DNA of 43,292 bases from Bacteroidales bacterium (lineage in GTDB: Bacteria > Bacteroidota > Bacteroidia > Bacteroidales > WCHB1-69). Positions 1 to 43,266 of this stretch are shown here, one piece after another. Numbering within the stretch: the first letter of the stretch is position 1; each line of letters opens with the position of its first letter. The stretch lies in NCBI GenBank assembly GCA_017551725.1, contig JAFZKY010000049.1, positions 1 to 43,292 on the forward strand. Direction: 5' to 3'. The translations under genes and the position numbers were made by a program. The notes beneath the pieces were generated by a model. The model worked only from the letters and a program-made list of their open reading frames with translations, searched no databases and had not been told where the DNA came from.

Positions 1-1033
1 CGGAGACGGTGTATGTCAGGCCGGTGCCGTCCGCCCAGGTGAAGCTCTCGCACACGGTGGTGTCGGTCACGTTGTGCGTGCCGTAGTTCACCGTCAGGTG
101 CAGCGTGTCCACGCTGGCGCAGCCGTCTTCATTGGTGTACGGGTGCGTGTAAGTGCCGGAGACGGTGTATGTCAGGCCGGTGCCGTCCGCCCAGGTGAAG
201 CTCTCGCACACGGTGGTGTCGGTCACATTGTGCGTGCCATAATTCACCGTCAGGTGCAAGGTGTCAACGCTGGCGCAACCGTTGGCGTTGGTGTACGGGT
301 GCGTGTAGGTACCGGAAACGTTGTAGGTCAGGCCGGAGCCCTCCGTCCAGGTGAAGCTCTCGCACACGGTGGTGTCGGTCACGTCGTGTGTACCGTAGTT
401 CACCGTCAGGTGCAGGGTGTCAACGCTGGCGCAGCCGTTCTCGTTGGTGTACGGGTGGGTGTAGGTGCCGGAGACGGTGTAGGTCAGGCCGGAGCCGTCC
501 GCCCAGGTGTAGCTCTCGCAGACGGTGGTGTCGGTCACGTCGTGTGTACCGTAGTTCACCGTCAGGTGCAGCGTATCCACGCTGGCACAGCCGTTCTCGT
601 TGGTGTACGGGTGCGTGTAGGTGCCGGAGACGGTGTAGGTCTGGCCGTCACCGTCAGTCCAGGTGAAGCTCTCGCACACGGTGGTGTCGGTCACATTGTG
701 CGTGCCGTAGTGGACGGTCAGGAACAGCGTATCAACACTGGCGCAACCGTCTTGGTTGGTGTACGGGTACGTGAAGGTGCCAGAGACGGTATAGGTCTGG
801 CCGTCACCGTCAGCCCAGGTGAAGCTCTCGCACACGGTAGTGTCGGTCACGTCGTGCGTACCGTAGTTCACCGTCAGGTGCAAGGTGTCCACGCTGGCGC
901 AGCCGTTCTCGTTGGTGTACGGGTGCGTGTAGGTGCCGGAAACGTTGTATGTCAGGCCGGTGCCGTCCGTCCAGGTGAAGCTCTCGCACACGGTGGTGTC
1001 AGTCACGTTGTGCGTGCCGTAGTTCACCGTCAG
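1..1033 (-). repeat. 156-bp coding tandem repeat (52 residues per unit), about 6.6 copies, cut by the window edge
   Basis: Copies begin at 1, 157, 313, 469, 625, 781 and 937, an exact 156-bp period with no indel. The seventh copy stays close to the others only to about 1033 and then diverges into a degenerate unit. Each unit reads TVCESFTW, then a G(T/D)G(L/Q)TY segment, GTYTHPYTNENGC, ASVDTLHLTVNYGTH and V(T)D. Two Cys per unit could form a disulfide. Copies differ by a few point changes in different combinations, for example GTHNVT against GTHDVT and LHLTVN against LFLTVH, as expected for unequal crossing-over or gene conversion. Confidence 0.97.
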
Positions 1034-7771: not shown

Positions 7772-7792
7772 ACATTTTCCTTTCTTGTCCAT

Positions 7793-9193
7793 TTATTCAC
7801 AAATATCACCAATGCCGTTCCCGTTCTCATCCGTCTGGTCCGGATTGAAGTAATCGGGACAATTGTCAGATTCATTCGGCACCATATCGCCATCCCGGTC
7901 GGGATCGCAAACATCACCCGTCCCATCGCAGTCATAATCCAGCTGGTCGGGATTGTAGGTGTAGGGGCAGTTGTCCTCAGTGTCGGGAACCCCATCGCTA
8001 TCGGAATCTTCATCGCAGGCATCCCCCACCCCATCATAATCGGTGTCCTCCTGGTCGGGATTGTAGGTCACCGGACAATTGTCGCACGGGTCGCCAATAC
8101 CATCGCCATCCGTATCATCCTGATGAGGATTGTAGTGGTAAGGACAGATGTCCACATCATTCGGCACCCTGTCACCATCTATATCATCATCCAAATCATT
8201 CGGAATGCCGTCATTGTCAATATCATCATCACAGTCGTTGCCAATGTTGTCCGAATCGAAGTCATATTGGCGCGGATTGGGGAAATACTTGCAGTTGTCG
8301 CAGGAGTCGCCCACCCCGTCGTGGTCGAAGTCCAACTGGTCGGGATTATAATTCCACTTGCAGTTGTCGCAGACATCCCCCACGCCATCGCGATCGAAGT
8401 CCTTCTGGTCCGGATTCGCTTTCACAGGGCAGTTGTCGCACGCATCCCCTACTCCATCACCGTCACCATCCACTTGGTCGGCATTGCTGATACAGGGGCA
8501 GTTGTCCTGGTCATCCGTAATGCCATCGCCATCGAAATCATTGCCGGAAACAAAATCACCGACCGTCCTTGAATCCAAGAAAGACAATATGTTGGAGTTC
8601 AAAGGCAGACTATCGTTGACAATGGAGGCATACCACTGGTTTCCGATATTCTGCATAAAATAGGGAATGGTAACAAACGGGACATTATTGTTATAACAGG
8701 AAACGATGGCCACCGTATAGTCCCCAGCATTGTATGAGAGCAGCAGCTTCATTTTCTGCACACGCCCCACAAGATGCAGGAATCGTTGGGCAAGCGAGTC
8801 GGTTGGGAACATGCCATCAAAAATGGCAGCGTCGGAAGGCCGGTACTGCTGTTTCACAGCGGTCATACTCTGTTGCTGATACGCCTGCAGCAAGCGGCAC
8901 AAGGCAGCCGGAAGCGATGGGTTCTGAGCCGGGTTTTCCGTACCTCCCGTCAACGAAATCATACGGTTGTCGTCGTCCGAGGGAACAAGTCCCGTAAGGG
9001 AATAGGAGTACACCTCCCCGCACAACCTGTGCACACTATCGTATGAGTGGAGGTTGGGGCTGACAAGACCCAAATCCAAAGTCACTCTGTAATTGTCGTT
9101 CTGATAGGCCGGAAAACGGCAGGTCTGAGCCTTCACCGGCATAACATACATTAAAGCGACAGCCAATCCGAAAATGATATATAACTTTTTCAT
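7793..9193 (-). CDS. Secreted protein with C-terminal thrombospondin type-3 calcium-binding repeats
   Basis: 466 residues. A signal peptide (MKKLYIIFGLAVALMYVMPVKA|Q) is followed by a unique domain of about 190 residues with several Cys that I do not recognise. From about residue 215 to the end there are roughly nine TSP3-type units (D.DGDG(V/I)GD.CDNCP...NPDQ). This Asp-rich loop binds calcium in thrombospondins and in many bacterial outer-membrane proteins. TSP3 repeats often sit before an OmpA peptidoglycan-binding domain, but here the protein stops inside the repeat (NGNGIGDICE), with no OmpA domain and no sorting domain. The gene lies 18 bp after the 416-residue gene and 21 bp before the adhesin gene. 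A likely role is a calcium-stiffened spacer or partner for the giant proteins, but that is inference from context. Confidence 0.93.
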   Translation of the reverse strand: MKKLYIIFGLAVALMYVMPVKAQTCRFPAYQNDNYRVTLDLGLVSPNLHSYDSVHRLCGEVYSYSLTGLVPSDDDNRMISLTGGTENPAQNPSLPAALCRLLQAYQQQSMTAVKQQYRPSDAAIFDGMFPTDSLAQRFLHLVGRVQKMKLLLSYNAGDYTVAIVSCYNNNVPFVTIPYFMQNIGNQWYASIVNDSLPLNSNILSFLDSRTVGDFVSGNDFDGDGITDDQDNCPCISNADQVDGDGDGVGDACDNCPVKANPDQKDFDRDGVGDVCDNCKWNYNPDQLDFDHDGVGDSCDNCKYFPNPRQYDFDSDNIGNDCDDDIDNDGIPNDLDDDIDGDRVPNDVDICPYHYNPHQDDTDGDGIGDPCDNCPVTYNPDQEDTDYDGVGDACDEDSDSDGVPDTEDNCPYTYNPDQLDYDCDGTGDVCDPDRDGDMVPNESDNCPDYFNPDQTDENGNGIGDICE

Positions 9194-9198
9194 ATTTT

Positions 9199-9206
9199 CA
9201 CCTCCC
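9199..9206 (-). promoter_or_regulatory. Strong Shine-Dalgarno site of the TSP3 gene
   Basis: On the minus strand the sequence GGGAGGTG ends a few bases before the ATG at 9193, with 7 nt between the GGAGG core and the start codon. It is a near-perfect anti-16S match. The first two cluster genes lack such a site, and Shine-Dalgarno use is generally weak in Bacteroidota, so this gene may be translated independently of its upstream neighbour. Confidence 0.7.
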
Positions 9207-9211
9207 TATCC

Positions 9212-10462
9212 TTATTTAAACAATGTAGTTTCAATTATATTAAATGGACCAAATTTTTCAGTGGCAAGGCTGAAAAGGGTGATTTCGCCCCCAATACCCA
9301 CAGAGAAATTAACCCCACCCCATCGGAGTTCATCCCCCACTTTCCAAAGGACACTGGTGTTGGCCTCCCCTTGCAGTTTTAGGTCTGCCTTGAAAAATTT
9401 GTCATTGATAACAAGCACGCGGACACCTCCATAGGCCGACGCGAACAACTTGAATTCAATAAACATGTCAGAACACTTCCCACGGAAAACCACCGATATT
9501 GGCCCTGCCGTCACACCCATTCCCGCGCCAAAGATGACATACACGCCTCCCACGTATGGGAAACTGAGATTGGGAATAGGAAATTGGCAGTCAATATTCG
9601 CCGAAAAGGTCATGGTGGGACTGAAAACCTGGAAAGCCGTTACCGAATCATGGTTGCAGCACGCCCGGAAGAATTTTGGCGCAAGCATTGAAAATCCGCT
9701 TTCCACACCATCCGAACTGCCAAAACCGGTAAAAGAGGGTTTGCAACCGGGTCCGGCATCTGGGGATATACTTTCAATAAGCCCCGACACCTCCTGTGCT
9801 TGTAAAAGTAGATCTCTGGCTTTTTGTATCTTATCCTTAATTTGGGTTAATTCATTAGGATCGGTATCAACGCTTACATCGGAACTTGAGTTATCATTGA
9901 AAACTTTCAGATTATCAACTGTATAGTCGGACGTATGTCCGTTATACCGAATTGTAAGCACCACCGGCTGGCCTTCGTGTGCCACATCGGGCCACACGGT
10001 TGCCTTATTGCCGTAGCCTTCCGGAGAGGTCTCTATTATAAAATCTTCCGGTTTTATGGGTTCTCCTTCGGTATAGCATTGGTATAGTGGCGTAACGTTC
10101 ACAATGGTGATGGAGTCTATCAAAGTCACCAGCACCCGTGCCTCCTCCACACCGCATTTGGAGACACGCCGCACATTATACTCGTTCTCCATTTCCCTCG
10201 GGTTCACTGTCACGACCGGTTTTTTCGGGTCTCCGACAATGTTCGGGCCGCTCCATTCGTAGCTTTTGTCCTGCGAGTCCTCCATAGAGCCTATCTCCAC
10301 CACTTGTGAGTTGTCAGCGAATTTCTCCACCTTTACGGTGTCCTTTCCCCACCAGTGATTCGAGCCATTATTCTGCTGGGCTTGGGCCGAGCAAAACAAC
10401 ATAAGTGCAAAAAATACTGTTATTATGGATTTTATAGTATTCATATCGTTATGTTTTTTCAT
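9212..10462 (-). CDS. Secreted protein of unknown function, translationally coupled to the giant gene
   Basis: 416 residues; no family recognised. The N-terminus MKKHNDMNTIKSIITVFFALMLFCSAQA gives a signal peptide with likely cleavage before QQN; the internal Met at residue 7 is an alternative start. Residues of about 50-110 contain SYEWSGPNIVGD and a strand pattern like the Ig-like units of the downstream adhesin. Residues 110-200 are another beta-rich stretch. About 200-235 is a short, probably helical or coiled-coil segment (ELTQIKDKIQKARDLLLQAQ). The rest is Gly/aromatic-rich beta structure with several Cys. Its ATG shares one base with the stop of the 6,920-residue gene (TAATG), so the two proteins are probably made together. 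It could be a chaperone, an anchor or a minor subunit; the sequence does not decide between these. Confidence 0.9.
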   Translation of the reverse strand: MKKHNDMNTIKSIITVFFALMLFCSAQAQQNNGSNHWWGKDTVKVEKFADNSQVVEIGSMEDSQDKSYEWSGPNIVGDPKKPVVTVNPREMENEYNVRRVSKCGVEEARVLVTLIDSITIVNVTPLYQCYTEGEPIKPEDFIIETSPEGYGNKATVWPDVAHEGQPVVLTIRYNGHTSDYTVDNLKVFNDNSSSDVSVDTDPNELTQIKDKIQKARDLLLQAQEVSGLIESISPDAGPGCKPSFTGFGSSDGVESGFSMLAPKFFRACCNHDSVTAFQVFSPTMTFSANIDCQFPIPNLSFPYVGGVYVIFGAGMGVTAGPISVVFRGKCSDMFIEFKLFASAYGGVRVLVINDKFFKADLKLQGEANTSVLWKVGDELRWGGVNFSVGIGGEITLFSLATEKFGPFNIIETTLFK

Positions 10463-19400: not shown

Positions 19401-22400
19401 AGCCGATATCAATCGTGCCGTTGTTGTGCACACGGGTTTCACCGGCCAGATCTTTTTCGGCCATCTCCACCGTATTGAGGCCCATATCTATCAGGGAAGA
19501 ACCCTCCTGCAGGCGGTAATCGCCGGAATAGGGTGAGGCGAACATCGGATAATGAAGTCCACTTTCCGTACCTAAATTGTCGTGTGCCAGATTGATCACG
19601 GTGGTATCGCCTTCTAAACCACCCTCAATGGCGCAGTGGATGAGCGTTAAGTCGCTGCCGTAGTTGGCGATGTTGCAGACCGTGTCGTCCGAGATGTTAC
19701 CCCATACCACCGTGTTAATCATCACACCGGAAAAATAATCCAGGCCCGCGTAGTATCGGGTGTAATAGGATCCCCCCGAATTGGTGTACCGACTGGTGTT
19801 GCCCACAATGTCGCAGTTGATCAGGGTGTCGGAAATGCTGTATGCACCGGAACAGAAGCGAGCCGTATTGTCGCTGATTTCGCAGTTCACCAACTTGCGT
19901 CCGCCGTATAGAGCGCCACCACTTCCTCCGGCGTTATTGCCGGTGAAGCGGCAATTGATATAGCTGGCATAATCCTTGTAATCATAGACAGCGCCGCCAT
20001 CACTATTGGACGACGTGTTGCCTGTGAACTCACAATTGCGGAAGCAATATCGGTTGTAACGGTCACCATCATCGTATCCATATACTTCCTCAATGTAAAC
20101 GGCGCCACCGCTTGATGTGGACGTGTTGTCCACGAAACGGCAATTGCGCACCTCGAAATTACGTTTCAGGTATGCGCCACCGCCTTGACCATTGATGTTG
20201 CCATGCCGGATGGTGAAACCGTCGAGCACCACTGTCATGCTGTCGTTATAGGAATTCTGATACAGCAACCTGTTGTTATTATAGCCATAGAGAACAGTAG
20301 GATGGGCATTGATATTACGTGCTTCAATGGAGGTATCACCCCTGACGAAGCCGCCGTATAATTTCATGCCGGCCTCCAAGATAAAGTCGGCCCCACTTGT
20401 GCTGGAAGTGCTGCTATAGGAGCCCTCCGCCACCCAGATTTCCGGCATCGTACCGTATGTCTGGTATATCTGCTGGGCAGTACTCATCGCCCAATCAAGG
20501 TTGCGGGTGGCATCTTCCCAACTGCTGCCATCGCCCATACCCCTGTTGGAGACATAGATACGGGAAAGATGTTTGGGAGGGGTGGTGAAGCGAACTCTCT
20601 TCCACGCGCTGGCAGAATCGCCGGAGCAAACCGAACGCACACTCACCTCGTATTGGGTGTTCTGGTGCAAGCCTCTCAGCCAGTTGTAGCCGCTGTCGGC
20701 CTGTACCCAAACCGGGTTGGCATAAGTTCCCACCACGCTATACATCATATCCAAAGATGTAGCCCCTTCACCTGGCACAGCAAGCAGTAAAGCGCTGGAA
20801 TCCGTCACCTCCTGCACGAAAAGATTCGCGCGATCGCAGCCCATATCACAATATCCCGGCAAACGCAAATTGTTCACATAATAAGAAGTGGTTCCGGTTG
20901 TGACCGTATAGGGGTCGAAGTCATCACCATTGTTGTTGTTATAAACATACAGGCCTCTGCGTTCCGAAGCATTATGTGTGTAAAAAGCCGTTGCCTGCGG
21001 TATTCCCGTGTCGCCAGTCTTGTCATTGAACACAAGCACCAGATTGTCTATACCATTGTACTCAAACGTATCAAGAGGAATGGAGAACCAGTTGTCACCT
21101 CCTGTCTCATTGAAAACTATATCGCCCGAGAACACCAATTGAAGGGCGCTACCCGGCACAAACGTGTTGTCAGAGAAGGATGATTTACTCGTATGGCCCA
21201 GATAGATATCCACGATTCTATGCGCACGCGACGAGTTGTAATACTGCAGATATATGACGTCAATGGTTCTGGCCCCACCCAGTTCGGAAGCCTGGTACAG
21301 CTGTTGCGAATAGGACTGGGTGGCAGTGCCGTAGATCGGTAGCCTGTCAGCATTTGATGTGCCGTTGGATGTTCCCAAAATCAGTTCCGGAGCATAGCCG
21401 CCCGAACAGTTCGTGGTGAATGTGAGTGCATCCGAATACTCTGACACTTGCCCCGTGTCGCAGATGGCGCGCAGTCGGGCCATGTAGGAGGTTTGCGGCG
21501 ACAAGCCCGTCAACAGATAGGAGTTGTCATGAATCTGTTCGCCAACCGTGGTCCATGCCACATCATCCGCTTTTTTATAGGAAAGCTCATAATACAAAGG
21601 CTCGTTGAGATTGCTGTTGGCCCATGTCAACATGGCGGAACTGCCCATCACATCCTGCAGGGCAAGAGAGGCGGGTTCCATGCAGTATTCTTCATTGTGG
21701 AACTCGTAACAGCCGATATCCACCGTATTGTCATACACACGAACACCACCCGCCAAGTCTGTAGCGGGCATATTGTCGGTGTTCATACCGGCGTTAATCA
21801 AAGAGGAGCCGGCACGCAAACGATAATCGCCACTGTTCGGAGCGACAAAGAACGGATAATACAGCCCCTGTTCGCTACCCATATTGTCGTGTTGCAAGAT
21901 TTTAACTCCTGTAAAGTCATTCGTAAGAGATTCCACCGCCGAATACTGGAAGGTGGCGTTGTTCTCCACATTGGAGGCATAGCCGATATTGGTGTTACCC
22001 CAAATTACGCTATTATTCACAATATTGAAACTTTGCGTAGAACTGAAGTAGACACCACCGCAAATCGAAGTGGCGTAATTGTTGACAACCGTGGAATTTT
22101 CCATTCTCAACCTCGAGTTCACATAGATGCCACCACCCACCATAGCGGTGTCATTTGCTATCAGACAGTTTATGATACCTTGACAGGTGTCGGTCGAGGA
22201 AAGATACGTTACATTGATACCGCCGCCATAGGAATTGCTGCGGTTATGAGTGATCGAACAGCTTTGAACAAGGCCGTAGTACATGCAAACACCACCTCCG
22301 TCGGAATAAGCCCCGTTATGCGAAACCGTACTATTTTTCAGTTGGGAGTAATAAAGATATACACCGCCACCTAAACTGCTGTATGAATTGTTGTTTTCTA

Positions 22401-25400
22401 TCGTACAATGGTCAATAATGACACAACTGGTGCTAAGGGTGTTTGTGGATGTGCTCACACCGCCTGCATACACACCGCCGCCCGACGAATAGGCCCAGTT
22501 GTCCACGACACGGCAATGGATTAAGGAGGAGTTGCCTCTCAGATAAGCGCCGCCGCCAATCTGACCGCTACTGTTCTCGTAGGCGGCTTTACCATGCTGC
22601 AAGGTAAAGCCATCCCACACGGTTCTTTGGGTGAAGCTGGTAGGTTGATATAACACACGCTGGCTGTTCTGTCCATCAAGTATGGAGGGATGTGCTGTAA
22701 CGTCACGCAGACTCAAGTCATAATCGTCGCTCTCGTCACCAGCAAAACCACCATACACATTCACGCCCTGCACCATGGTGAAAGCATTGTCGGATGTTCC
22801 GTCGCCATAATAGGTACCCTGAGCCACCCAGATGTCCGGTGCCATGCCATACTTCTCCTTGATGCTGGCGGCATAGTTCAGCGCCCACGCCAGGTCATTG
22901 GTGGCATCAGCCCAGCTGCTACCGTTGCCTTGGGAACCTTCTCTCACATACAAACGGTCAAGATAAGCTAAATTCGTCTTGAACGTTTTCATCTGCCAAA
23001 CGCTGCTATCTTGTCCGGAGCAGATGGAGCGCGCCCGCACCTCATACAACGTGTTTGGGAGCAATCCCGTTAGCAAATACGGACTGCTTTGGGTCGGCAA
23101 CACCGTATAATTGTCTTGTCCATACACATGGTATTCCATCTGCATATCGACAGCCCCGTTGCCTGCTGCAAAAACGACAAGAGCGGATGTGTCGGTCACA
23201 TCTCTCACTACCACATTGACGCGACCACAATCCGCCGCCTCACACAATCCCGGCAACCACAAGTTGTTCACGTATGTCAATTTACCACCCGTTACAAGCG
23301 AAGCCGGATTGATGACAGCGGAACTGGTGCTGCTGCGATAGCTGTTTAAAGTCCTAGCATCGGGAGTTACATGAGTATAGAAGCCGCAATCCGATGAGCT
23401 TGTGGAACCCGTCTTGTCATTAACCGCCAATACTAAATTATCCACTCCATTATATTCAAACACTCCCCTATTCAACGGGATTGCCAACCAATCGTATTCT
23501 ACCGTAGTATTGAGCGTAAGTGAACCCGAGAACACCAGCTGAAGCTCGCTGACCGGCACATAGGAATTGTCCGTGGCGAATGTTGAACGGCTGGTATGCC
23601 CCAAGTATACGTCTAGCGTCCTGTTCTCCGAAAAATAATTATTATAATATTGCAAATACAGGGTGTCAATTGGTCTGGCGTTTCCAATCTCGGAGGCAAG
23701 ATACAGCTGTTGACAGTATGAGTAACGAGCATTGGAGTTGAAGGGTATGACAGTGCCGTTAGTCGTCTCATCGGTCTCCCCAATATGCACATCTGCTACA
23801 TAATTACCCGAGCAGACAGTGCTGAACGTGACAGCGTCCGTATAGGCCGAGCTGCTATTCTCACCGCATACGGCACGCACCCGCACCATATAGGATTTTT
23901 GCGGCTCCAAACCCGTTAATAGGTAGTAGTTGTCCGCCACCTGTCCCGCTACGATCCAATCGTTAACATTCGCGATCTTGTACGACAGCTCATACTGGAC
24001 GGCGTCTTCTATGGAGCTGCTCTGCCACGTGATTACCGCGGAGTTGCCCGTAACATTTTCCACGGTCAACGCCATCGGGGAGAGGCAGTAGATCTCGCCA
24101 TGATATTCGTAGCATCCCATGTCGATGGTGTTGTCATACACACGCACCAGATCCGCCAGGTCAGTGGAATCTTCGTTTTTGATGTTCCATCCCGCATTAA
24201 TCATCGGGGATTGGCTGCGCAAACGATAGTCGTCATACTCCGGAGACACGAAGAAGGGATAGTAAAGTCCGTCGCCTACACCGATGTTCTCACTCTGCAA
24301 GATGATGTTTGTATTGTCGGCATCGGTAGGACAGTTCTCCACCGCATTGTACCGGAAATAGCTGACACTATAATATGGGACATTGTCAACCACCTGGTTG
24401 CTGCCCTTTCGGTTGCCCCATACAATGTTATTATATAGGTAGTTTGAAGTGTTCTGGTTATGGATACCACCAGCATTGCTGCTAGCCCAGTTATTCACGA
24501 CAGTATTGCCTACGATATTTGAATAGCTTCTGTATGCATATACACCGCCGCCGGTTGTAGAACTTGTATTATTGGCTATCAAACAATTGTAAAGTCCATT
24601 TGTTCCATCTGCATAATCCAAATAAACACCGCCACCATTCGAAGAACTTGTGTTATGGCTTATGATACAACGTTTTATCAAACTGTAATACCCATTCACA
24701 CCACCACCAAAAGAGGAGGAATTGTATTCAACCGTACAATTTTCAATCGTACTGTGAGAAGCATATACACCACCACCCGAGTATCCTGTGTTATGGGTTA
24801 TCGTACTATGCCCCACTGTACTGTATATTGCATAGAGACCGCCGGCATAATAGCCCGTATTGTTGGTCACCGTGAGATGTTCAGCATTGCTATATCGGAT
24901 ATAGATACCTCCACCGTAATTGTTTGTGGAGTTCAAATGATAATAGTTACCTGAAATCACACAGGAGTCTATCTGGATTCGGCCATCAGAATTTCCGAAT
25001 GCGAAAAGACCACAGCCTCGATATGCGGAAGCATTGTTGACCACTTTGCACTTGTGCAATGTCGACATTTCACGCAGGTAAATGCCACCGCCATCGCCGT
25101 TATCATTTCCGGAGGAAGCCCATCCATGCTGTATGGTGAAGCCGTCTATAATGGTACGGGTGTTGAAATCGGCGGGCTGATACACCACACGCTGGCTGTT
25201 TTGACCATCCAGGATGGTGGGATGTGCATCCGGATCGCGCAGCGAGAGATCGTAGTTGTCAGGTTCGTTGCCCACAAAGCCGCCATACATGTGCACGCCT
25301 TCCACCAAGGTAAAAGCGTTGTTGGAGATGCTGTCGCCGTAGTAGGTGCCTTGAGCCACCCAGATATCCGGGGTAATGCCCGAAGACTGGCGTTCGTATG

Positions 25401-28400
25401 CGGCATAGTTCAATGCCCTGACCAGGTTGCCGGTGGCATTCTCCCAGCTGCTGCCATCGCCATGGAAGCCTTCCCGCACATACAAACGGTTGAGACTCCG
25501 GACGGCAGTGGTGAACGACTGGCTCATCCAATTGCTGTATTGATCCTGGTCACAGATTGATCGGATGCGCACTTCGCCTCGCGTGAAAGGACGCAGCCCC
25601 GTCAGCAGGTGGGAGCCGTCGCCAACAGGCAGACTGGTGTATTGGTCGTCACCCTCCATCTTGTATTCCAACTCCGTGCTCACCGTTCCGACACCCGGGG
25701 TGTAGAGAATCAGGACCGAGCTGTCGGTCACGTCCCCTATTGTCAGGTTGGCGCGGTCGCAACCCTCAGAGATGCACTGGCCCGGTAGCCGGATGTTCAT
25801 CCGGTAATTGGTTCGTGAGCTGGCCGACTGCGGACTGGCAGGGTTGCAGTTGGTGTTGTCGTTGTAGTAGGCAATGCTGCTGTTGGGCAGAGATGAGTGC
25901 AAGTAAAAACGGGCTGCGTTGGTGCCCCAACTACCAGTATTGTCATCGAAAACCACTACTAAGTTGTCGGTGCCGTTGTAGGCGAAAGTGGTGTCGAACG
26001 GAATGGTAAACCAGTAATCCTCGCCGCTATTGTTGAATGTCAAGGATCCGGAATAGACCATGGTGAGATCGCTCAATGGCACCCAGTCACTATTGCTGGA
26101 GAAAGAGTTTTTATCAGTATGCCCCAAATAGATGTCTATCGTACGACTCACGGTTGTAGTGTAAAAATACTGCACTGCCATCTGGTTGATGTCCTTTTCG
26201 CCGCCGAGCATGTCTGCCCTATAGATTTGCTGGGTGTAGCTGTATTTGTAGTAGGCATGGGTTGGCAGGTAACTCACACTGGTATTGGTGCTCCCCGATT
26301 CAATGACGATCGCATCCGTATATCCGCCCAAGCATTCCGTGGAGAACATTGCGGTGGCATAGCTGGACAAACTGTCATCGCAGAATGTGCGCAGCCGCAC
26401 CTGATAGGCCGTCTGCTGTTGCAGGCCGCCTAACAAATGATATTCGTGCTGAAGGCCCGTCACGGTGTGCCATTCGGTCGAGTCGGCCGCCTTGTATTGC
26501 AGTTCGTATGACAGAGGGGCTTCCGAGTTGCTGTTGCGCCATGTGATCAGTGCCGAGCTACCTGTAATATTATTCACCACGATGTTAATCGGGGCGGTAC
26601 AGTAGGTCTCGCCATGATACTCATAGCAGCCCAAGTCGATAGTATCGCCATACACACGCGCCAAGTTTGCCAGGTCGGAGGCGGAAGTTGTGGTAGTGGC
26701 GCCGCCGGCATTAATCAAGGCAGATCCTTCCCGCAGGCGGTAGTCGCCATCCTCGGGTGATGCGAACATCGGATAATGCTGTCCGTTGTCCGTACCGATG
26801 TTCTCATTTGACAAATTGATAACACCGTCATTCCCACTAATACCGCCTTCCACAGCACAATTCTCGTAGCTGTAGGAGAGATAATCCGTGCTGTTACTAC
26901 CGGTGGTGTTGCCCCAAAGCACGCAGTTCTTCAGGTTGATGCTGACTGAAGTATTGCTTCTGTATATGTCACCTGCGGAGCTGTTGGCATGGTTGTTGGC
27001 CACCGTAGTCTGTTCTATAGTGAGATTATCCTGGGTTTTATAGATGCCGCCACCACTATATAACGATGTGTTATCGGCCACAAGGCAGTTGGAAATCTGC
27101 ACACCCGGAACGGAATAGGTATAATAAATTCCGCCGCCGTAATTGGCTTGATTGTTTGTGAAACTGCTGTTACGGATTTGTGCGTAAATGGCATAAAGGC
27201 CACCACCGTAAGAGGTTGCCGTATCATGTGTAAAGGTACAATGATCTATCAGCACCGGATTTGTTTCACTGCCTGTGGCATATACGCCCCCACCCCAGAT
27301 TCCTTTGTTATTCATCAGCTTGCAATGGTTCAAGCCCGACCCCGCATACAGGTAGGCTCCACCGCCATAAGCACTAGGATTTCCGTTTTGAATGGTGAAA
27401 CCATCCCAGACGGTTTGGGTGGTGAAAGCCTGCGGCTGCTGCAAAACCCTGCGACTGTTCTGTCCGTCGAGAATTGTGACATGGAGATCGAAATCACGCA
27501 AGGCCAAATCATAGTTGTCGTCCTCGTTCCCCTCAAAACCGCCATACACATTCACGCCTTCTGCCATGGTGAACGCATTGTCGGCATGGACATCCCCATA
27601 GTAAACGCCCTGCGCCACCCACACGTCCGGGGTGACACCAAACTGCTGTCCTATAGTGGCTGCCGTGCTCACCGCCCAGTTAAGGTCGTTGGCGGCATCG
27701 CTCCAGCTGCTGCCTTCGCCGGTCCCGCCGGCCTTGACATACAAACGATCGTAGCGCTTTGCCCCCGTGGTGAAGGTTACGCTCTTCCACACGCTGCTGT
27801 CTGCACCGCAATGCGAGCGGATACGCGCCTCATACTGGGTGTTCTGCGTCAAACCCGTCAGTGTATAGGGACTTCCCGCTACTTGGATCGGGGTGTAGCT
27901 GTCCTCACTCATTTTGCGGTATTCCAGGTCATAATCAGAGCTACCCGCACCCGGCACAAAGACCAGCAACGCCGATGAATCGGTGATGTCTCTCACCACT
28001 AAATTCGAGCGGTCACAACCCGAATTGATACACATGGGCGGGATGCGCAGATTGTTACGGTACGTGGTGTAACCTTTGGCGTTACCCGGAGATGAAGGAG
28101 AATAATTCGTGTAGTCGTTATTGTAGTACAAAGCTCGTGCTACAGGCGTCGTATGGACATAGAAATTGTTTCCCGTCACATCCGAACCGGTGTTGTCATC
28201 AAAAGCAAACACCAAATTGTCAGTGCCGTTATACTCAAAAGCGGTTGTCAGCGGAATTGTTTGCCAATCGGTTGTTCCGGTAGTGTTGAATGTGATATAG
28301 CCGGTAAATACCGGTGTCAGATTACTATAGGGCACCCAATCGCTAGTGCTGCTAAAAGAACTTTTATTTGTGTGACCGAGATAAATGGAGACATATCTTC

Positions 28401-31224
28401 GTTGGGAAGAGCCTGTGTATTGGAGAGCGATATTGTCAATGGTCACCGGCCCTCCGATCTCCTCCGCCAAATAAATCTGCTGGCTGTAAGAATACTTATA
28501 ATATATATGTGTCGGCAGATAACCGATAGTGGAGGTTCCCTGCCCTATGATACCCGAAGATTCCGACAAACATTTGGTGGTAAATGCCTTTTCGCTGGAA
28601 TAACCGGAAACAGTCCCCGCATCACACCAGGCGCACATTCGCACAAGATAGTCTGTGTGAGGCTGCAAGCCCGAAATCATGTAATAGTCATCGTGAATGT
28701 TGTCAATCACCGTCCAATTAGCAGAGTCAACCGCCTTATAGGACAATTCATACTTGTACGCCGCCTCCGGATTGCCGTTCTCCCACGTGACCATCGCCGA
28801 GCTGGAGACAATGTCGGCGACGACAATGCTGCATGGTGCGGCACAGTAGGTCTCGCCGTGGTATTCGTAGCAACCCATGTCTATCGAATCGCCATACAGG
28901 CGGCTTTCGCCTGCCAAGTCAGATGTACCCCGTACATAGCTGTTCGAACCCGCATCAATCAAGGCCGATCCGGCGCGCAGACGGTAGTCTCCATACTCCG
29001 GTGCCACAAAGAAGGGATAATGCTTGCCGTCCTGCGTGCCGAAGTTGTCGTTTTCTAACGCAATAATCTCCTCACCACCGTCATAGCCGCCCTCTATTGC
29101 CGAGCGGACGGCGACGATTCCAGCCGGAAGATTGCTGGATTCATCACCCATCTTGTTGCCCCAAACCACACTGTTGATGAGTGTGAAGCTTGAAGTAGAA
29201 GGCGCACTGATGCCTGCGACACCCGTGCTGGAGATGGTATTGCCCACCACGTCACAATTCAACAACACCCCTCTTATATCGTACAAACCGCCTGAATAAT
29301 ATGTGGCTTTATTGTTGGCTATAAGACAGTTGGTGAAATTTCTCGCTATGTTCACCGCTCCAACGTATGAATCGGATTGGTTGTTGGCAAATAGGCAGTC
29401 GGCAAAATCAAGAGAGGCATAACCATTCACGGCACCGCCGTATGTGGTGCTTCGGTTGCCGACAAACTCGCAATTTTGGAAATCATATCCTTCGAATTGG
29501 TGTTGGACTCCCGCATACGCCACCGCGCCGCCTCTGCCTGCCAAGTTGTCCGAGAACTTGCAGTTTCTCACATATACTTTCTCATACAGATACAGGGCGC
29601 CGCCGTTGGTGCTCACCCCATTCTGGAAGGTGAAGCCGTCAATTACCGTTTCTATGGAATCCCGCACAAAGAGACACTCCATCACACGCCGATCCTTATG
29701 TCCGTCTAACACCGTGGAATGGGCGGTCAGGTTGCGCTGTTCCTTAGAGGTCTCACCGGAGGCAAATCCGCCATACAGCTTGATCCCGTTGTACATGGTG
29801 AAGGCGGTTGTGCCGTCCCCACTGCTGTAACAGCTGCCTTCAGCCACCCAGACTTCCGGGTTCACACCGTATGTGTTCCGGATTTCAAAGGCCGTGCGGA
29901 GCGCCCAGTTGAGATCATCGGTGGCCTCGCTCCAGCTGCTTCCATCGCCCGTTCCGGTAGTAGTCACGTACAAACGCTCGAGGTTCTTCACCCCTGTGGT
30001 AAATGTGAAGGATTTCCACGAACTGATTCCATTGGCGCAAACGGTGCGCACACGCACCTCGTATTCGGTGTTCTGATTTAGATCCGTAAGTGTAAAAACA
30101 TCGTTGTACGTTGGTAAGGCTGTGTACATATTGTCGCCAGTCTTGCGGTATTGCACCTCCTGTCCGGCATTCTCGGGAACCACTAGAAGAACTTTCGCCG
30201 AGGAGTCGGTGGGCTCTACCACCACCACATTCGACGTGCCGCACGCGTTGTCAAGGCAAGTTTCAAAACGAATGTTATTGCGATAGCCCGACCTGTTGAC
30301 CTGATAGAAATTCGCATCCGAATTAATGGAACTGATTGTCGAGAAATCGTAATTTGATACGCCATACGCATATAAAGCCCGATTGACTCCGCAATATGAG
30401 GTGAAAAATTTTTCTGCCGACACACCGTCGGCTCCCGTATTATCGTCAAAAGCGATAATCAGATTGTCCGTGCCATTGTAGCTGAAGGGAGTGCTCAAGG
30501 CGATGGTGAACCATTCGCTGTTGTTGTTGAACGTGATTTCACCCGAGAACACCTGTGTCAGGCTGTCGCTCACCTCCCAGTCTGTCGTGCTTGCGAACGA
30601 CGACTTGGCAGTATGTCCCAGGTAAATGGTCAGATTACGGGTAATGGGAGTGCCATAAAAATACTGCAACGAAATATTCGAAATGATTCTTGCACCTCCG
30701 AGCTCTGCCGCCGTGTAAATCTGCTGCGAACAGGCATAGTAATTATTGTAATTGAAGAAGGGCAGCATGGCGCCGTAGTTGCTGGCGTTCCCCTCACCTA
30801 TTGTGGCGGTTTCCGAGGCACGGCAGCCCGTGGTGAAGCTCTTTTCCACATAATCCGACGTGGTTCCCGCGCACACAGCCCGCAGGCGTACATTATAGAC
30901 CGTCTGCGGCTGAAGACCGGTGAGCAGATAATACTCTGTCTGCAGGTCCGTTACCACAATCCATTCATTGGAACCAGTCATCTTGTACGACAGTTCGTAT
31001 GAGCCGATGAAGTCATTGTTGCGCTGCCATGTCACAAACGCCGATGTGCCCATTACATCGCTCACCTCCAAATACGCCGGTGGCTGACACTCATCGAATG
31101 TGGCAAGCATATGTCCGTTAACGTATGCGGTACCGACACTAATCGTGGCGTGAACAGCGTTTAGCGGACACAGGCCGGTAATGGAAGACAATAACAAAAC
31201 AATAAGGAAGTACATTTTTCTCAT
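10462..31224 (-). CDS. 6,920-residue modular exported protein: FN3, beta-sandwich, beta-helix and CARDB domains
   Basis: A single uninterrupted frame of 20.8 kb. The N-terminus MRKMYFLIVLLLSSITG...NAVHA is a signal peptide. Domains by approximate residue: FN3 46-133; a beta-sandwich-like domain 134-325 (QQIY...YLGHT.KSSF...YNGTDNL.IAFDDNTG); a second FN3 326-412; a right-handed parallel beta-helix 413-785 (LYV...GDGSSW.DA, (V/I)WVAQGTYYGD, YGGF, repeated GGGVY.., C.(V/I).NN). The helix ends in a DYRL..GS.LI(D/N)AG...D.GCYEYHGE closing motif. This set recurs with ends near 785, 1531, 2373, 3175, 3945 and 4811. A seventh beta-helix lacking FN3 and sandwich ends near 5205. Two FN3-like domains follow (to about 5440), then nine CARDB-like domains (DLVV....NYTV.N.G, 5445-6615) and a unique C-terminus of about 300 residues with an IPT/TIG-like stretch. 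I see no type IX sorting domain and no catalytic motif. It is probably a very long surface or extracellular adhesive fibre and the first gene of its operon. Confidence 0.95.
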   Translation of the reverse strand: MRKMYFLIVLLLSSITGLCPLNAVHATISVGTAYVNGHMLATFDECQPPAYLEVSDVMGTSAFVTWQRNNDFIGSYELSYKMTGSNEWIVVTDLQTEYYLLTGLQPQTVYNVRLRAVCAGTTSDYVEKSFTTGCRASETATIGEGNASNYGAMLPFFNYNNYYACSQQIYTAAELGGARIISNISLQYFYGTPITRNLTIYLGHTAKSSFASTTDWEVSDSLTQVFSGEITFNNNSEWFTIALSTPFSYNGTDNLIIAFDDNTGADGVSAEKFFTSYCGVNRALYAYGVSNYDFSTISSINSDANFYQVNRSGYRNNIRFETCLDNACGTSNVVVVEPTDSSAKVLLVVPENAGQEVQYRKTGDNMYTALPTYNDVFTLTDLNQNTEYEVRVRTVCANGISSWKSFTFTTGVKNLERLYVTTTGTGDGSSWSEATDDLNWALRTAFEIRNTYGVNPEVWVAEGSCYSSGDGTTAFTMYNGIKLYGGFASGETSKEQRNLTAHSTVLDGHKDRRVMECLFVRDSIETVIDGFTFQNGVSTNGGALYLYEKVYVRNCKFSDNLAGRGGAVAYAGVQHQFEGYDFQNCEFVGNRSTTYGGAVNGYASLDFADCLFANNQSDSYVGAVNIARNFTNCLIANNKATYYSGGLYDIRGVLLNCDVVGNTISSTGVAGISAPSTSSFTLINSVVWGNKMGDESSNLPAGIVAVRSAIEGGYDGGEEIIALENDNFGTQDGKHYPFFVAPEYGDYRLRAGSALIDAGSNSYVRGTSDLAGESRLYGDSIDMGCYEYHGETYCAAPCSIVVADIVSSSAMVTWENGNPEAAYKYELSYKAVDSANWTVIDNIHDDYYMISGLQPHTDYLVRMCAWCDAGTVSGYSSEKAFTTKCLSESSGIIGQGTSTIGYLPTHIYYKYSYSQQIYLAEEIGGPVTIDNIALQYTGSSQRRYVSIYLGHTNKSSFSSTSDWVPYSNLTPVFTGYITFNTTGTTDWQTIPLTTAFEYNGTDNLVFAFDDNTGSDVTGNNFYVHTTPVARALYYNNDYTNYSPSSPGNAKGYTTYRNNLRIPPMCINSGCDRSNLVVRDITDSSALLVFVPGAGSSDYDLEYRKMSEDSYTPIQVAGSPYTLTGLTQNTQYEARIRSHCGADSSVWKSVTFTTGAKRYDRLYVKAGGTGEGSSWSDAANDLNWAVSTAATIGQQFGVTPDVWVAQGVYYGDVHADNAFTMAEGVNVYGGFEGNEDDNYDLALRDFDLHVTILDGQNSRRVLQQPQAFTTQTVWDGFTIQNGNPSAYGGGAYLYAGSGLNHCKLMNNKGIWGGGVYATGSETNPVLIDHCTFTHDTATSYGGGLYAIYAQIRNSSFTNNQANYGGGIYYTYSVPGVQISNCLVADNTSLYSGGGIYKTQDNLTIEQTTVANNHANSSAGDIYRSNTSVSINLKNCVLWGNTTGSNSTDYLSYSYENCAVEGGISGNDGVINLSNENIGTDNGQHYPMFASPEDGDYRLREGSALINAGGATTTTSASDLANLARVYGDTIDLGCYEYHGETYCTAPINIVVNNITGSSALITWRNSNSEAPLSYELQYKAADSTEWHTVTGLQHEYHLLGGLQQQTAYQVRLRTFCDDSLSSYATAMFSTECLGGYTDAIVIESGSTNTSVSYLPTHAYYKYSYTQQIYRADMLGGEKDINQMAVQYFYTTTVSRTIDIYLGHTDKNSFSSNSDWVPLSDLTMVYSGSLTFNNSGEDYWFTIPFDTTFAYNGTDNLVVVFDDNTGSWGTNAARFYLHSSLPNSSIAYYNDNTNCNPASPQSASSRTNYRMNIRLPGQCISEGCDRANLTIGDVTDSSVLILYTPGVGTVSTELEYKMEGDDQYTSLPVGDGSHLLTGLRPFTRGEVRIRSICDQDQYSNWMSQSFTTAVRSLNRLYVREGFHGDGSSWENATGNLVRALNYAAYERQSSGITPDIWVAQGTYYGDSISNNAFTLVEGVHMYGGFVGNEPDNYDLSLRDPDAHPTILDGQNSQRVVYQPADFNTRTIIDGFTIQHGWASSGNDNGDGGGIYLREMSTLHKCKVVNNASAYRGCGLFAFGNSDGRIQIDSCVISGNYYHLNSTNNYGGGIYIRYSNAEHLTVTNNTGYYAGGLYAIYSTVGHSTITHNTGYSGGGVYASHSTIENCTVEYNSSSFGGGVNGYYSLIKRCIISHNTSSSNGGGVYLDYADGTNGLYNCLIANNTSSTTGGGVYAYRSYSNIVGNTVVNNWASSNAGGIHNQNTSNYLYNNIVWGNRKGSNQVVDNVPYYSVSYFRYNAVENCPTDADNTNIILQSENIGVGDGLYYPFFVSPEYDDYRLRSQSPMINAGWNIKNEDSTDLADLVRVYDNTIDMGCYEYHGEIYCLSPMALTVENVTGNSAVITWQSSSIEDAVQYELSYKIANVNDWIVAGQVADNYYLLTGLEPQKSYMVRVRAVCGENSSSAYTDAVTFSTVCSGNYVADVHIGETDETTNGTVIPFNSNARYSYCQQLYLASEIGNARPIDTLYLQYYNNYFSENRTLDVYLGHTSRSTFATDNSYVPVSELQLVFSGSLTLNTTVEYDWLAIPLNRGVFEYNGVDNLVLAVNDKTGSTSSSDCGFYTHVTPDARTLNSYRSSTSSAVINPASLVTGGKLTYVNNLWLPGLCEAADCGRVNVVVRDVTDTSALVVFAAGNGAVDMQMEYHVYGQDNYTVLPTQSSPYLLTGLLPNTLYEVRARSICSGQDSSVWQMKTFKTNLAYLDRLYVREGSQGNGSSWADATNDLAWALNYAASIKEKYGMAPDIWVAQGTYYGDGTSDNAFTMVQGVNVYGGFAGDESDDYDLSLRDVTAHPSILDGQNSQRVLYQPTSFTQRTVWDGFTLQHGKAAYENSSGQIGGGAYLRGNSSLIHCRVVDNWAYSSGGGVYAGGVSTSTNTLSTSCVIIDHCTIENNNSYSSLGGGVYLYYSQLKNSTVSHNGAYSDGGGVCMYYGLVQSCSITHNRSNSYGGGINVTYLSSTDTCQGIINCLIANDTAMVGGGIYVNSRLRMENSTVVNNYATSICGGVYFSSTQSFNIVNNSVIWGNTNIGYASNVENNATFQYSAVESLTNDFTGVKILQHDNMGSEQGLYYPFFVAPNSGDYRLRAGSSLINAGMNTDNMPATDLAGGVRVYDNTVDIGCYEFHNEEYCMEPASLALQDVMGSSAMLTWANSNLNEPLYYELSYKKADDVAWTTVGEQIHDNSYLLTGLSPQTSYMARLRAICDTGQVSEYSDALTFTTNCSGGYAPELILGTSNGTSNADRLPIYGTATQSYSQQLYQASELGGARTIDVIYLQYYNSSRAHRIVDIYLGHTSKSSFSDNTFVPGSALQLVFSGDIVFNETGGDNWFSIPLDTFEYNGIDNLVLVFNDKTGDTGIPQATAFYTHNASERRGLYVYNNNNGDDFDPYTVTTGTTSYYVNNLRLPGYCDMGCDRANLFVQEVTDSSALLLAVPGEGATSLDMMYSVVGTYANPVWVQADSGYNWLRGLHQNTQYEVSVRSVCSGDSASAWKRVRFTTPPKHLSRIYVSNRGMGDGSSWEDATRNLDWAMSTAQQIYQTYGTMPEIWVAEGSYSSTSSTSGADFILEAGMKLYGGFVRGDTSIEARNINAHPTVLYGYNNNRLLYQNSYNDSMTVVLDGFTIRHGNINGQGGGAYLKRNFEVRNCRFVDNTSTSSGGAVYIEEVYGYDDGDRYNRYCFRNCEFTGNTSSNSDGGAVYDYKDYASYINCRFTGNNAGGSGGALYGGRKLVNCEISDNTARFCSGAYSISDTLINCDIVGNTSRYTNSGGSYYTRYYAGLDYFSGVMINTVVWGNISDDTVCNIANYGSDLTLIHCAIEGGLEGDTTVINLAHDNLGTESGLHYPMFASPYSGDYRLQEGSSLIDMGLNTVEMAEKDLAGETRVHNNGTIDIGCYEYHGEVYCSVPYSLAANNITGTSAVISWQSGNPATSDHYILAYRKEGESTWTEVPQLIYDNSFVITGLQQQTTYQACVLAVCTLEVPPATNTQPGDSTPIWIFPQYDVTSSEYSAPVTFTTVCSGEYAEEVTVGNGYNASNSSANYYPVYAGGYRSYTQQIYLSDEIGGWRMLDTLYLRRYSSTEFSRNLDVYMGHTRKNEFSNNSDWVPFNELTLVYSGNLNFPNAGDGEWFAIPLTAFEYNGIDNLVIAFHDHTGARSNLSSYYTCYTYYTSGSRSLYSYRYNNFNASSEYDLLHPDDGTRTDYNNVIRFPGKCVQGTCDAPGLTVQDVTDSSASVLVTGIVEGDTTELEYRDTDNAGNETYNSLPAPLSSNMPVQLYALSPDTRYEVRARVWCGNGSSEWRHVYFRTPAKDINRLYVTPNGTGDGTSWAKAAHDISAMQNLALSVRAQFGHTPDIWVAQGTYYGDTTAVSDNAFTMVEGVNVYGGFEGVEPENYDLSLRDFENHASILDGRNNRRVLNQPSHFTTRTTWDGFTIQNGNANTSNSSENNGGGVYLKNGSTLSHCQITHCTGTGYGKAVYVEGDNSYYSNYDTTYLQNCTISHNSAIGSSYNGKGVVYLYKKVVMDSCVVENNKEVYAYTVYVDNGAIRNSTVRYNSVLYYSGSTMSCVSATNAVVSACDISYNEANSTGGLSASNTLVDNCLIANNTGGSSSGYGGVYAGTSVVIKNSTIVNNVSYSPQGAGIYAGSYGSAIINCIVWGNKNSSDGISSIYMGDGYLTVSRTAADEVLEGDYNILLSPANEGSSALQGPEFVRPSHTAGSDDTTARVDWHLNRSSTLVNRGDNSVATVYDIEGNDRVQMSTIDLGCYESPYMGTYVFPTTYDSIIYVVEGGAGARTGDSWENALPTIQEALLLATLYHAQVWVARGSYYGDSVSGSAFYMAPGIRVYGGFAGVETSIAQRVIEDNPTILDGDYRQRVLMQDRNYTAETAAIWDGFIIQNGQTLGNGAGVYMRAYSTIRNCTVRYNVIASETPNNTTSYYGAGVYASNNYNCIISHCKVEYNTYVNAERVTGGGVSGGRIDHSEISHNTAYSHGGISGGYVTNSLIYDNKAETIYTNYGNSSYNASGVGDGTYINCDIVQNRGGASNNHGTMINCIIWGNGGNYMGNYSNGSVSYSYCAIQKDRENSNYTGEGNITLESDNDGYASDRNYVRFIDPAADDFRLHITSNCVNVGSNAALDSTDTLDLLGNPRVKNQVVDMGCYEMQEENSCPPVLNLHVDNVSATWVDLNWHPTGSESQWLLRYHRVAYGSPEELVTVNVNDVTQDTAGNVTYRLNGLTSFRSYTADLRAVCGDSINSVYSLPVTFTTICDTAAFDNMPDFTSMTVLNADDYEYVKYVYRIPGLDLAWSAIEHATSYDVYLWNATDPEPTTPRYTVTTPTISSAYPLPKRYAYSYYDFFGDYYETDNYWQSFQFGESYCWKVVAWNNCVSKSSPVDTFTLPKQCDLHVTQITNSAARVSQPMTVNYTVKNDGGGRTPNGMVWTEYIWITSNGDIRWEEQGLGGLYLLAQVPCLGQLYPGDSANREVTVTIPSDIESGTYYLYVLADQMDAFYHDFSQCPDSAAPNPYQPSVTGNPYPYVKAFSHYGGILPEAGKYEFEMAEGMIRFGVNDNFFYKVLEVMPPPAPDLVVTAVNHSGNANSGDRTTITWTVENTGSSVARDTSWIDAIYISEDTILDQFNDLLLGRYVHENGLGAGENYQNSAEVTIPVDYMGDYYIFVVTDHAQTVYENIYEGNNTGISAPLTVILTRHTDLVASNVSLSSNVVDANGDLSCHFTVTNNGATPTYENRWVDAVYISRDSVYSRLTAFRLAAVTHNGVLNGEDHYDVEVNMHIPDTISGKRYLFVIADAQNDVFEHSVGLLNTAEDNNVFTYSPALDVRVPDLYVSSITLPDVVKPLVLTPVRWVVRNNGPGNLINRSFTDRFVVENEVVYEADVRNVSIPAGDSLVRTALIRIPCVSPAALTIFTDDNLRVMEANELNNYTTKQLNLHASTLRVSDLSVVRNASAVNDPLWSGTTANLSYTVTNIGLVEVESDTIVDKIYFSRYADSYSASDSVGVNIHPIYLERGSSESYVCPVTIPNGVSGNYYFHVVCNATDIICMPVRPSMSSDPLDVQVSPSPDLVVTDVSAPAQIYLGANFELNYTIANQGTAAVHHNVVQKFYYSNSRTTYDTLNQFAMVNEHLDLEVNASVTNTLVGALPVNITSGNYFIHVVTDATDQIYEHEAEDNNRGVSSSVMALVYPLDLQLTLEAPDVLRWGETVICTLHIRNNSDVPSFVPRWPRWEDVVYLSYDPIRSNDDLQLASEQRDSVLAAGATYTVQLPITVPYGADTTVAYLIGVTDKDHANPDINRDNNQFIKEVRIKPTSTPDLAVSNVVVLDEVVCGQATRIAYTVTNVSTELDISQQSWVDRVFVSGDSTLRNTAVLLQNVGRTNMTLGMQESYRDTITFAVPMAFNGNLYLLMEANGNNIMFEANRENNMVAVPVNVTLPLPGDLVVTEVSCANSVVSGQQLNARWTIKNIGNNALRGNGLRSLAYISADTVFDVNDRLLGGVTSNGINMGVDATMQQNVTGRISGLAPGEYYIIVKIDVTNAFHEVNDQNNTGYLLDPFTVTIRPLPFNTDVFDTVRNSEVSDYQLTVGENKGQTVRVHLASEDSLDGAVNMIYITHNGMGDNLNYNFSTIGQYTANAELYIPSTLPGYYGVNIYGSTPVGVSQNMIVRADILPFELRAVNADHGGNTGKVTVELTGSRFRPDMAVCLRHGNEEICADTLIYVNYYKAFARFNLTGHTPGVYDVSAVNLCEGESVLYNGFTIVNGQPSEVGFNLLFPSAPRPNRNIVMMLEFGNTGNVDLHDQVLEITSIGGCPISLTSEGVGQNNTTIRLPLTIDGEPAGLLRPGSYGVLNIFTYSSNALIFSIKPVK
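11375..14895 (-). repeat. Array of nine CARDB-like domains
   Basis: Nine diverged units of about 110-130 residues start with (P/G/T)DL.V..(V/I) and contain an (Y/W)T(V/I).N.G strand, a WVD..Y(I/L)S segment, and SG.YY(I/L)(F/H)V(V/I)(T/A)D..(D/N).(I/V)(Y/F)E followed by NN. CARDB is the cell-adhesion-related Ig-like domain found in bacteria and archaea. Such arrays typically form extended stalks. Confidence 0.85.
15600..31090 (-). repeat. Six full FN3/sandwich/FN3/beta-helix modules plus one beta-helix-only module
   Basis: Full modules span about 750-870 residues (2.2-2.6 kb). Their closing GCYE(Y/F/S) motifs lie near 28870, 26630, 24105, 21700, 19390 and 16790. A final beta-helix without the FN3 and sandwich parts closes near 15610 with GCYEMQEENSC. 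Most modules begin with a C..P FN3 start directly after the closing motif of the previous one. DNA is diverged overall, but short blocks are nearly identical between modules, for example the part encoding NVYGGF around 17930, 22750 and 27540. Confidence 0.9.
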
Positions 31225-32232: not shown

Positions 32233-32272
32233 TGTTTTTTTAGTTTCATGCTTATTGAATGAATAATCGATG

Positions 32273-32280: not shown

Positions 32281-32298
32281 GCATAATTCCGAATATGA

Positions 32299-36171
<3,873 letters not shown>

Positions 36172-43261: not shown

Positions 43262-43266
43262 CTCAA

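What the first reader, a model, noticed from the sequence alone, without database searches (positions are those of the whole stretch)
1..31224. Operon-like set of four exported proteins including two giant modular adhesins
Four minus-strand genes with gaps of -1, 18 and 21 bp all start with signal peptides and contain only structural or adhesive domains that I can recognise. The first is 6,920 residues, and the last at least 2,590. One promoter sits upstream of the first. A coordinated fibre or adhesin system is inferred; SprB-like repeats suggest a surface role, and TSP3 repeats suggest calcium dependence. I know of no described system with this gene set.
Basis: partly seen in the sequence, partly recalled or inferred. 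Interest (0 to 1): 0.75.

Follow-up and report, generated by a model that had tools for sequence, protein, structure and literature searches.

The report
Four-gene split surface-protein assembly
Four adjacent genes in a Bacteroidales genome look like a split-up version of a giant surface protein that other bacteria make in one piece, with a central slot whose contents differ between species.

Summary
In detail: four minus-strand genes (A 6,920 aa; B 416; C 466; D >=2,597, cut by the contig end) with gaps of -1, 18 and 0/21 bp behind one promoter-like site. The set is conserved: A-B-C-D recurs, gaps at most 111 bp, in 18 named Bacteroidota loci and in a second operon of the same genome. In a 393-genome order sample all 6 copies of C lie in A-B-C-D.

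A's last 420 residues and D's DUF7619-like domain are partners: 15 of 15 places in the order sample, 62 of 66 named loci. In 26 named loci, from at least nine phyla by title, both sit in ONE polypeptide. Between them is a variable slot: RHS repeats, thermolysin, M23, M43, caspase, transthyretin-like repeats or, here, B plus TSP3 protein C. In six outer relatives A begins with a cohesin and D carries a dockerin.

Best reading: a gene-split, T9SS-linked surface scaffold with an exchangeable central payload. Contact, surface location and adhesion are inferred. Ten paper searches listed no description of it; few listed papers were opened.

The parts
31287..31320 (-). promoter-like site TTTG-N18-TATCTTTG, 62 bp before the start codon of gene A
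   Evidence: only full match on either strand of the window; consensus recalled
10462..31224 (-). gene A, 6,920 aa: N-terminal fn3 / beta-helix / choice-of-anchor Q repeats, then CARDB repeats, then the conserved C-terminal region
   Evidence: choice-of-anchor Q motif at residues 779, 1527, 2365, 3166
12442..14307 (-). part of A's CARDB repeat stretch (three places matched by the A3 profile; Pfam finds 7 CARDB stretches in A's C-terminal half)
10465..11727 (-). 'Acterm': conserved C-terminal 420 residues of A, one half of the A/D pair
9212..10462 (-). gene B, 416 aa: Ig-like N-terminal domain common in Bacteroidota proteins, plus a C-terminal half (beta-rich by eye only) with invariant CC and C
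7793..9193 (-). gene C, 466 aa: 190-residue N-terminal domain of its own (8543-9115) followed by 9 TSP_3 stretches
2..7792 (-). gene D, at least 2,597 aa, C-terminus beyond the contig end
1871..2476 (-). DUF7619-like domain of D, the other half of the A/D pair
1..1033 (.). 156-bp tandem array (6.6 copies) in D at the contig end

Best explanation
The operon encodes a multi-subunit surface assembly that is the gene-split form of a giant protein of plan [CARDB repeats]-[Acterm]-[slot]-[DUF7619]-[C-terminal part]. In many phyla this plan is one chain; in Bacteroidota it is usually cut at the slot edges into A (CARDB + Acterm) and D (DUF7619 and, in many relatives, a type IX secretion tail), with the slot content as its own gene(s) or as the N-terminal part of D. 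SHOWN by sequence: the conserved gene order, the A/D partnership, the fused forms, the variable slot, the T9SS tail on many relatives' D, and cohesin on A with dockerin on D in outer relatives. INFERRED: all four are exported by Sec; D crosses the outer membrane by T9SS and is anchored; A, which has no T9SS tail, is held by D through the Acterm/DUF7619 interface (helped in relatives by cohesin-dockerin binding); A's long fn3/beta-helix arm reaches outward as a ligand-binding arm; B and the presumably calcium-binding TSP3 protein C are carried in the slot as the payload or a calcium-stiffened joint. In the window's genome no cohesin or dockerin is found and A begins with fn3 and beta-helix repeats instead (the C21 copy with fn3).
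For: Linkage: of 16 Acterm places at E<=1e-20 in 393 genomes of the order I dropped one CARDB-only fragment (G188:C257, 81 bits); the other 15, in 10 genomes, all have the DUF7619 profile downstream on the same strand within 8.0 kb, 3 of them in the same frame; rough chance expectation 0.03. Own genome (81% complete): 2 full Acterm matches and 2 DUF7619 places, both pairs in the two operons. Named loci: of 77, 11 without a full Acterm were dropped; of 66, 26 fused, 18 A-B-C-D, 18 split with other slot content, 4 without DUF7619 but with at most 2,366 bases left after A. In all 18 A-B-C-D loci the gaps, measured to the first Met of the next frame, run from -26 to 111 bp. Slot contents. Cohesin on A and dockerin on D in 6 of 6 outer A-B-C-D relatives (L074-L077, L079, L113, own profiles; 2 of the A and 3 of the D match by construction; Pfam cut-offs met in 2 A and 3 D). 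T9SS tail over cut-off on D: 4 of 4 outer and 5 of 9 closer relatives scanned. T9SS in own genome: SprA_N and 71 tail matches, 64 over the cut-off.
Against: The window's D is cut, so its tail is not seen; L062, L066 and L072 D show none and L073 is below cut-off. No cohesin or dockerin in the window's genome, so the second link is absent here. 19 of 34 DUF7619 places in the order sample had no Acterm at 1e-20; of 5 such places on 4 contigs that I opened, 4 have a weaker Acterm match upstream in the same frame and G240 has none; the other 14 were not opened. The named set and the order sample overlap (G052, G094 and G354 contigs recur with the same lengths). Three genus mates and two family mates in the sample lack it, so it is accessory. 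Many named loci are metagenome-assembled.
Confidence: 0.6

Rival explanations
1. A payload-delivery system: A and D form a T9SS-linked chassis for a polymorphic effector, as proposed for TANFOR proteins; B (and C) would be an uncharacterised toxin-like or enzymatic payload acting on neighbours or on the substrate.
For: The slot holds RHS repeats in 10 of 16 Pfam-scanned split loci without B and C, with a GIY-YIG match below cut-off in one, and M4, M43, M23 or caspase domains elsewhere. PMC7073777 (abstract, passages and section 9 seen) reports toxins fused to, or encoded just downstream of, TANFOR proteins, near SprB + CTD genes.
Against: Neither B nor C matches an enzyme or toxin family in Pfam or NCBIfam (a relative's B), and profiles of B and of C's N-terminal domain find nothing meaningful in the PDB. 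Immunity genes were not searched for. The PLA2-like 'CCNHD' in B is not conserved.
Confidence: 0.2
2. A plain adhesin/fibre operon: four separately functioning surface adhesins co-transcribed for attachment to plant fibre or host mucus.
For: fn3, beta-helix, CARDB, TSP3 and DUF7619 domains; 7 of the 13 closest named loci (L061-L073) have titles naming rumen, abomasum, deer or horse faeces.
Against: The strict A/D partnership, fused forms and conserved slot position say one assembly, not four free adhesins. No carbohydrate-binding family was listed for A-D.
Confidence: 0.15
3. A secretion pair: B or the end of A is a dedicated export factor for A, and D is a passenger.
For: A lacks a T9SS tail and ends at the conserved Acterm region in all 6 A proteins aligned; B's C-terminal half looks beta-rich (by eye) with a nearly invariant G.
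Against: B has no match to outer-membrane channel families in Pfam; in fused proteins Acterm is internal, so it is not a terminal export signal there; B was found in only 19 of 66 named loci.
Confidence: 0.05

Closest known systems
TANFOR polymorphic toxins of Bacteroidetes (Jana et al. 2020, PMC7073777; abstract, passages and section 9 seen)
   Same: Large secreted proteins, often with fn3, in neighbourhoods enriched for SprB repeats and T9SS tails; payload either fused or in the next gene.
   Different: No TANFOR match in A of the window or of six relatives; the payload sits between two conserved halves, not at the C-terminus; the window variant has no recognised toxin.
SprB-type T9SS adhesins (recalled)
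   Same: Giant, exported, T9SS-linked; SprB repeats in 3 of 4 outer relatives' D.
   Different: Four-gene assembly; Pfam SprB not matched in the window's D; gliding partners not examined.
Cohesin-dockerin scaffolds (cellulosome kind; recalled)
   Same: Six outer relatives have cohesin on A and dockerin on D; dockerin also on the upstream giant gene in 5 of the 6; two small neighbours carry cohesin plus a T9SS tail.
   Different: The window's genome has neither domain at E<=0.001; enzymes were not sought in these loci.
T9SS-exported multi-modular enzymes of rumen Bacteroidales (PMC5831590; passages only)
   Same: Rumen Bacteroidales exporting large modular proteins with T9SS tails, some in operon-like clusters.
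   Different: Those are carbohydrate-active enzymes; that paper reports no cohesins or dockerins.
DUF7619 isopeptide-bond domain family (PMC12617251; passages only)
   Same: D's domain matches PF24595.
   Different: No column of the 20-row alignment has lysine in half or more of the rows, so the predicted Lys-Asp-Asn bond is not supported in this subfamily.
Thermococcales hypervariable Ig/CARDB modules (PMC8416519; passages only)
   Same: Large CARDB-containing surface protein with variable downstream genes.
   Different: Archaeal; no Acterm/DUF7619 pair in the passages seen.

Membership tests
T9SS substrate | C-terminal sorting domain at the end of D | tested here: inconclusive
   window D cut by contig end; over cut-off in 4 of 4 outer and 5 of 9 closer relatives scanned
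T9SS substrate | genome encodes T9SS | tested here: met
   SprA_N 539 bits; 71 tail matches, 64 over cut-off; other components not searched
T9SS substrate | C-terminal sorting domain on A, B, C | tested here: not met
   no Por_Secre_tail in A, B, C
SprB-type adhesin | SprB repeats | tested here: not met
   no PF13573 match in window D at E<=1; over cut-off in 3 of 4 outer relatives' D
TANFOR polymorphic toxin | TANFOR (TIGR02542) domain | tested here: not met
   NCBIfam scans of window A and six relatives' A
TANFOR polymorphic toxin | toxin payload | tested here: not met
   B and C: no toxin family; other loci carry RHS or peptidases
Cohesin-dockerin assembly | cohesin and dockerin domains | tested here: not met
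   own genome 0 and 0; present in six outer relatives
A-slot-D plan (this report) | Acterm followed downstream on the same strand by the DUF7619-like domain | tested here: met
   window 10465-11727 and 1871-2476
A-slot-D plan (this report) | physical A-D association | not testable with these tools
MtsC cell-cell cohesion protein (NF047638) | score over curated cut-off 350 | tested here: not met
   C scores 232.9 bits, best stretch in the TSP3 part

The most novel reading that the evidence does not exclude
Acterm and the DUF7619 subfamily are the two conserved jaws of a widespread extracellular chassis that holds an exchangeable payload (RHS shells, peptidases, caspase-like, transthyretin-like, or B+TSP3). 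It is one chain in most phyla and a non-covalent, T9SS-exported complex in Bacteroidota, where cutting the gene at the slot edges lets payloads be swapped as whole genes. The window shows a variant with a non-enzymatic, calcium-binding payload, in two copies in one genome.
Probability: 0.4. Interest if true: 0.78.

Novelty: new variant of a known kind. Interest (0 to 1): 0.62.

Why it matters
It turns four 'adhesin-like' genes of unknown role into one testable assembly: which protein anchors it (D), which depend on it (A, B, C), and where a payload sits. The same plan, cut or uncut, occurs under titles from at least nine phyla (titles), so it may explain a large class of giant CARDB proteins, some with RHS repeats. 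It also predicts that proteins without a T9SS tail can be carried to the surface by a partner that has one, which as far as I know (recalled) is not settled.

Tried and rejected
PLA2 idea for B: 'ACCNHD' in P0002 looked like a phospholipase A2 motif, but the HD is not conserved in 5 or 18 relatives; in that region only CC is. Rejected.

Not used as evidence. G245, a weak match to P0002, was dropped: it lies in a 912-residue frame and the genome has no Acterm, DUF7619-subfamily or C match. So 4 of 393, not 5, genomes carry B in an A-B-C-D operon.

Isopeptide bond in D: no conserved lysine. B versus the two-gene slot of G086/G188: only the Ig-like N-terminal domain matches. PDB searches for B, C's N-terminal domain, Acterm and DUF7619: nothing meaningful. 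Slot contents were Pfam-scanned in 10 of 26 fused loci and 16 of 18 'other' split loci; L082 and L124 were assigned M23 by 60% and 56% identity to L078; the transthyretin-like match in L104 is below its cut-off. Separate promoters for B, C, D: little room between genes; not tested by RNA. Five papers were opened in passages or sections (PMC12617251, PMC8416519, PMC7073777, PMC5831590, PMC10266427); the other listed papers were seen as listings only.

Full report
WHAT IS THERE. The window is a whole contig (G000:C50, 43,292 bases) of a 2.32-Mb, 66-contig, 81% complete genome. Four minus-strand genes fill its left three quarters: A 10462-31224 (6,920 aa), B 9212-10462 (416 aa), C 7793-9193 (466 aa) and D from 7792, open at the left end (2,597 aa read). 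A and B overlap by 1 bp, B and C are 18 bp apart, and D starts directly after C or 21 bp on. All four begin with a hydrophobic stretch (crude). One site of the TTTG-N18-TAnnTTTG kind lies 62 bp before A and is the only full match in the window (consensus recalled). D's left end is in a 156-bp tandem array, and the D of the second operon is cut by its contig end too.

DOMAINS. A carries fn3, beta-helix and choice-of-anchor Q repeats, then seven CARDB stretches. C has nine TSP_3 stretches. D has DUF7619. B matches no family. The 'SprB-like' label is not supported by Pfam in the window's D. A, B and C show no T9SS tail.

THE GENE SET IS CONSERVED. A second A-B-C-D operon lies in the same genome at C21:2-22273, and the same order occurs in G052, G354 and twice in G094, which belong to other families. 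C's 190-residue N-terminal domain occurs at 6 places in 4 of 393 genomes of the order, all 6 in A-B-C-D. A scan with A's C-terminal 420 residues (A3) gave 77 named loci; 18 hold A-B-C-D and one more (L063) ends after B. In the 18, gaps to the first Met of the next frame run from -26 to 111 bp. Of the 13 closest (L061-L073), 7 titles name rumen, abomasum, deer or horse faeces. The named set and the order sample overlap. The system is patchy: three genus mates and two family mates in the sample lack it.

TWO HALVES AND A SLOT. D's DUF7619 region forms a recognisable subfamily (A6, 20 rows, mean column identity 60%). In the 393-genome sample, 15 full Acterm places (one CARDB-only fragment dropped) all have this domain downstream on the same strand within 8.0 kb (chance estimate 0.03). 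The own genome has two of each, paired. Among 66 named loci with a full Acterm (11 of 77 dropped for want of one), 26 have both in one polypeptide (cyanobacteria, planctomycetes, proteobacteria, Lentisphaerae, Acidobacteria, a Clostridia MAG and others by title), 36 have them in separate genes on the same strand, and 4 run out of sequence. All 36 split loci are Bacteroidota by title. Against this, 19 of 34 DUF7619 places in the order sample had no Acterm at 1e-20; of 5 that I opened, 4 have a weaker Acterm match upstream in the same frame and one has none.

SLOT CONTENTS. Between the halves lie RHS repeats (10 of 16 scanned split loci without B and C, and 2 of 10 scanned fused loci), M23 (2 scanned, 2 more by similarity), M4 (1) and M43 (1), with L084 showing only SprB repeats and L080 nothing; among the 10 fused loci, 1 caspase-like, 6 transthyretin-like (one below cut-off) and 1 without any match. 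In the order sample, M4 occurs at three loci, G086 and G188 have two genes without enzyme families, and three fused loci have no match. B and C occupy this slot in the window.

A SECOND LINK BETWEEN A AND D. In six outer A-B-C-D loci (L074-L077, L079, L113) A begins with a cohesin and D holds a dockerin. The profiles came partly from these loci (2 of 6 A and 3 of 6 D match by construction); Pfam cut-offs were met in 2 A and 3 D, and full-length scans of the G052 and G354 A proteins gave no Pfam cohesin. The upstream giant gene has a dockerin in 5 of these 6 loci, and two small neighbours carry a cohesin plus a T9SS tail. The window's genome has neither domain, and the own profiles found none in L061-L073, where A's N-terminus is often outside the fetched DNA.

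EXPORT. The genome has SprA and 71 T9SS-tail matches, 64 over the cut-off. D ends in such a tail in 4 of 4 outer relatives and in 5 of 9 closer ones scanned (one more below cut-off, three without).

MECHANISM. Fusion elsewhere, constant neighbourhood and, in outer relatives, a cohesin-dockerin pair all suggest that A and D work as one object. I infer that D is the T9SS-exported anchor, that A is held by D and reaches outward, and that B and C sit between them. What B does is unknown; C should bind calcium through TSP3 repeats (family knowledge). Adhesion to plant fibre or mucus is the likeliest role if, as its closest relatives suggest, the organism lives in a herbivore gut; this is not shown.

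LITERATURE. Ten searches listed no paper that, from its listing, describes this arrangement; five papers were opened in passages or sections. The nearest is the TANFOR class (PMC7073777), whose defining domain is not found here. DUF7619 appears in one held paper (PMC12617251) as a predicted isopeptide domain, which this subfamily does not support.

Noticed in passing
G000:C21:43829-62721 (L020, L021): Three successive T9SS-tailed proteins (2,947, 2,647 and 512 aa) with near-identical last 30 residues, on the same contig as the second A-B-C-D operon.
   Followed up: no
window 31468-33072 and 42527-43285: Two Fib_succ_major domain frames flank a beta-galactosidase gene (32320-36171), a PLP decarboxylase, an O-antigen ligase-like gene and an S41 protease.
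   Followed up: no
L089:11178-18718: Spirosoma arboris: RHS gene with a C-terminal GIY-YIG match below cut-off, then a 310-residue frame, then the DUF7619 gene; looks like a toxin plus immunity gene inside the slot (inference).
   Followed up: partly
L099:11180-12469: A caspase-like (C14) domain sits between Acterm and DUF7619 in a giant protein of a Burkholderiales MAG.
   Followed up: partly
L029:6191-11065: A T9SS-tailed protein with 14 PKD_6 stretches lies downstream of the G354 operon.
   Followed up: no
L151:112-3045 and L152:1146-4031: Pair of 960-980 residue slot proteins with no Pfam match, 53% identical, whose Ig-like N-terminus matches that of B.
   Followed up: partly
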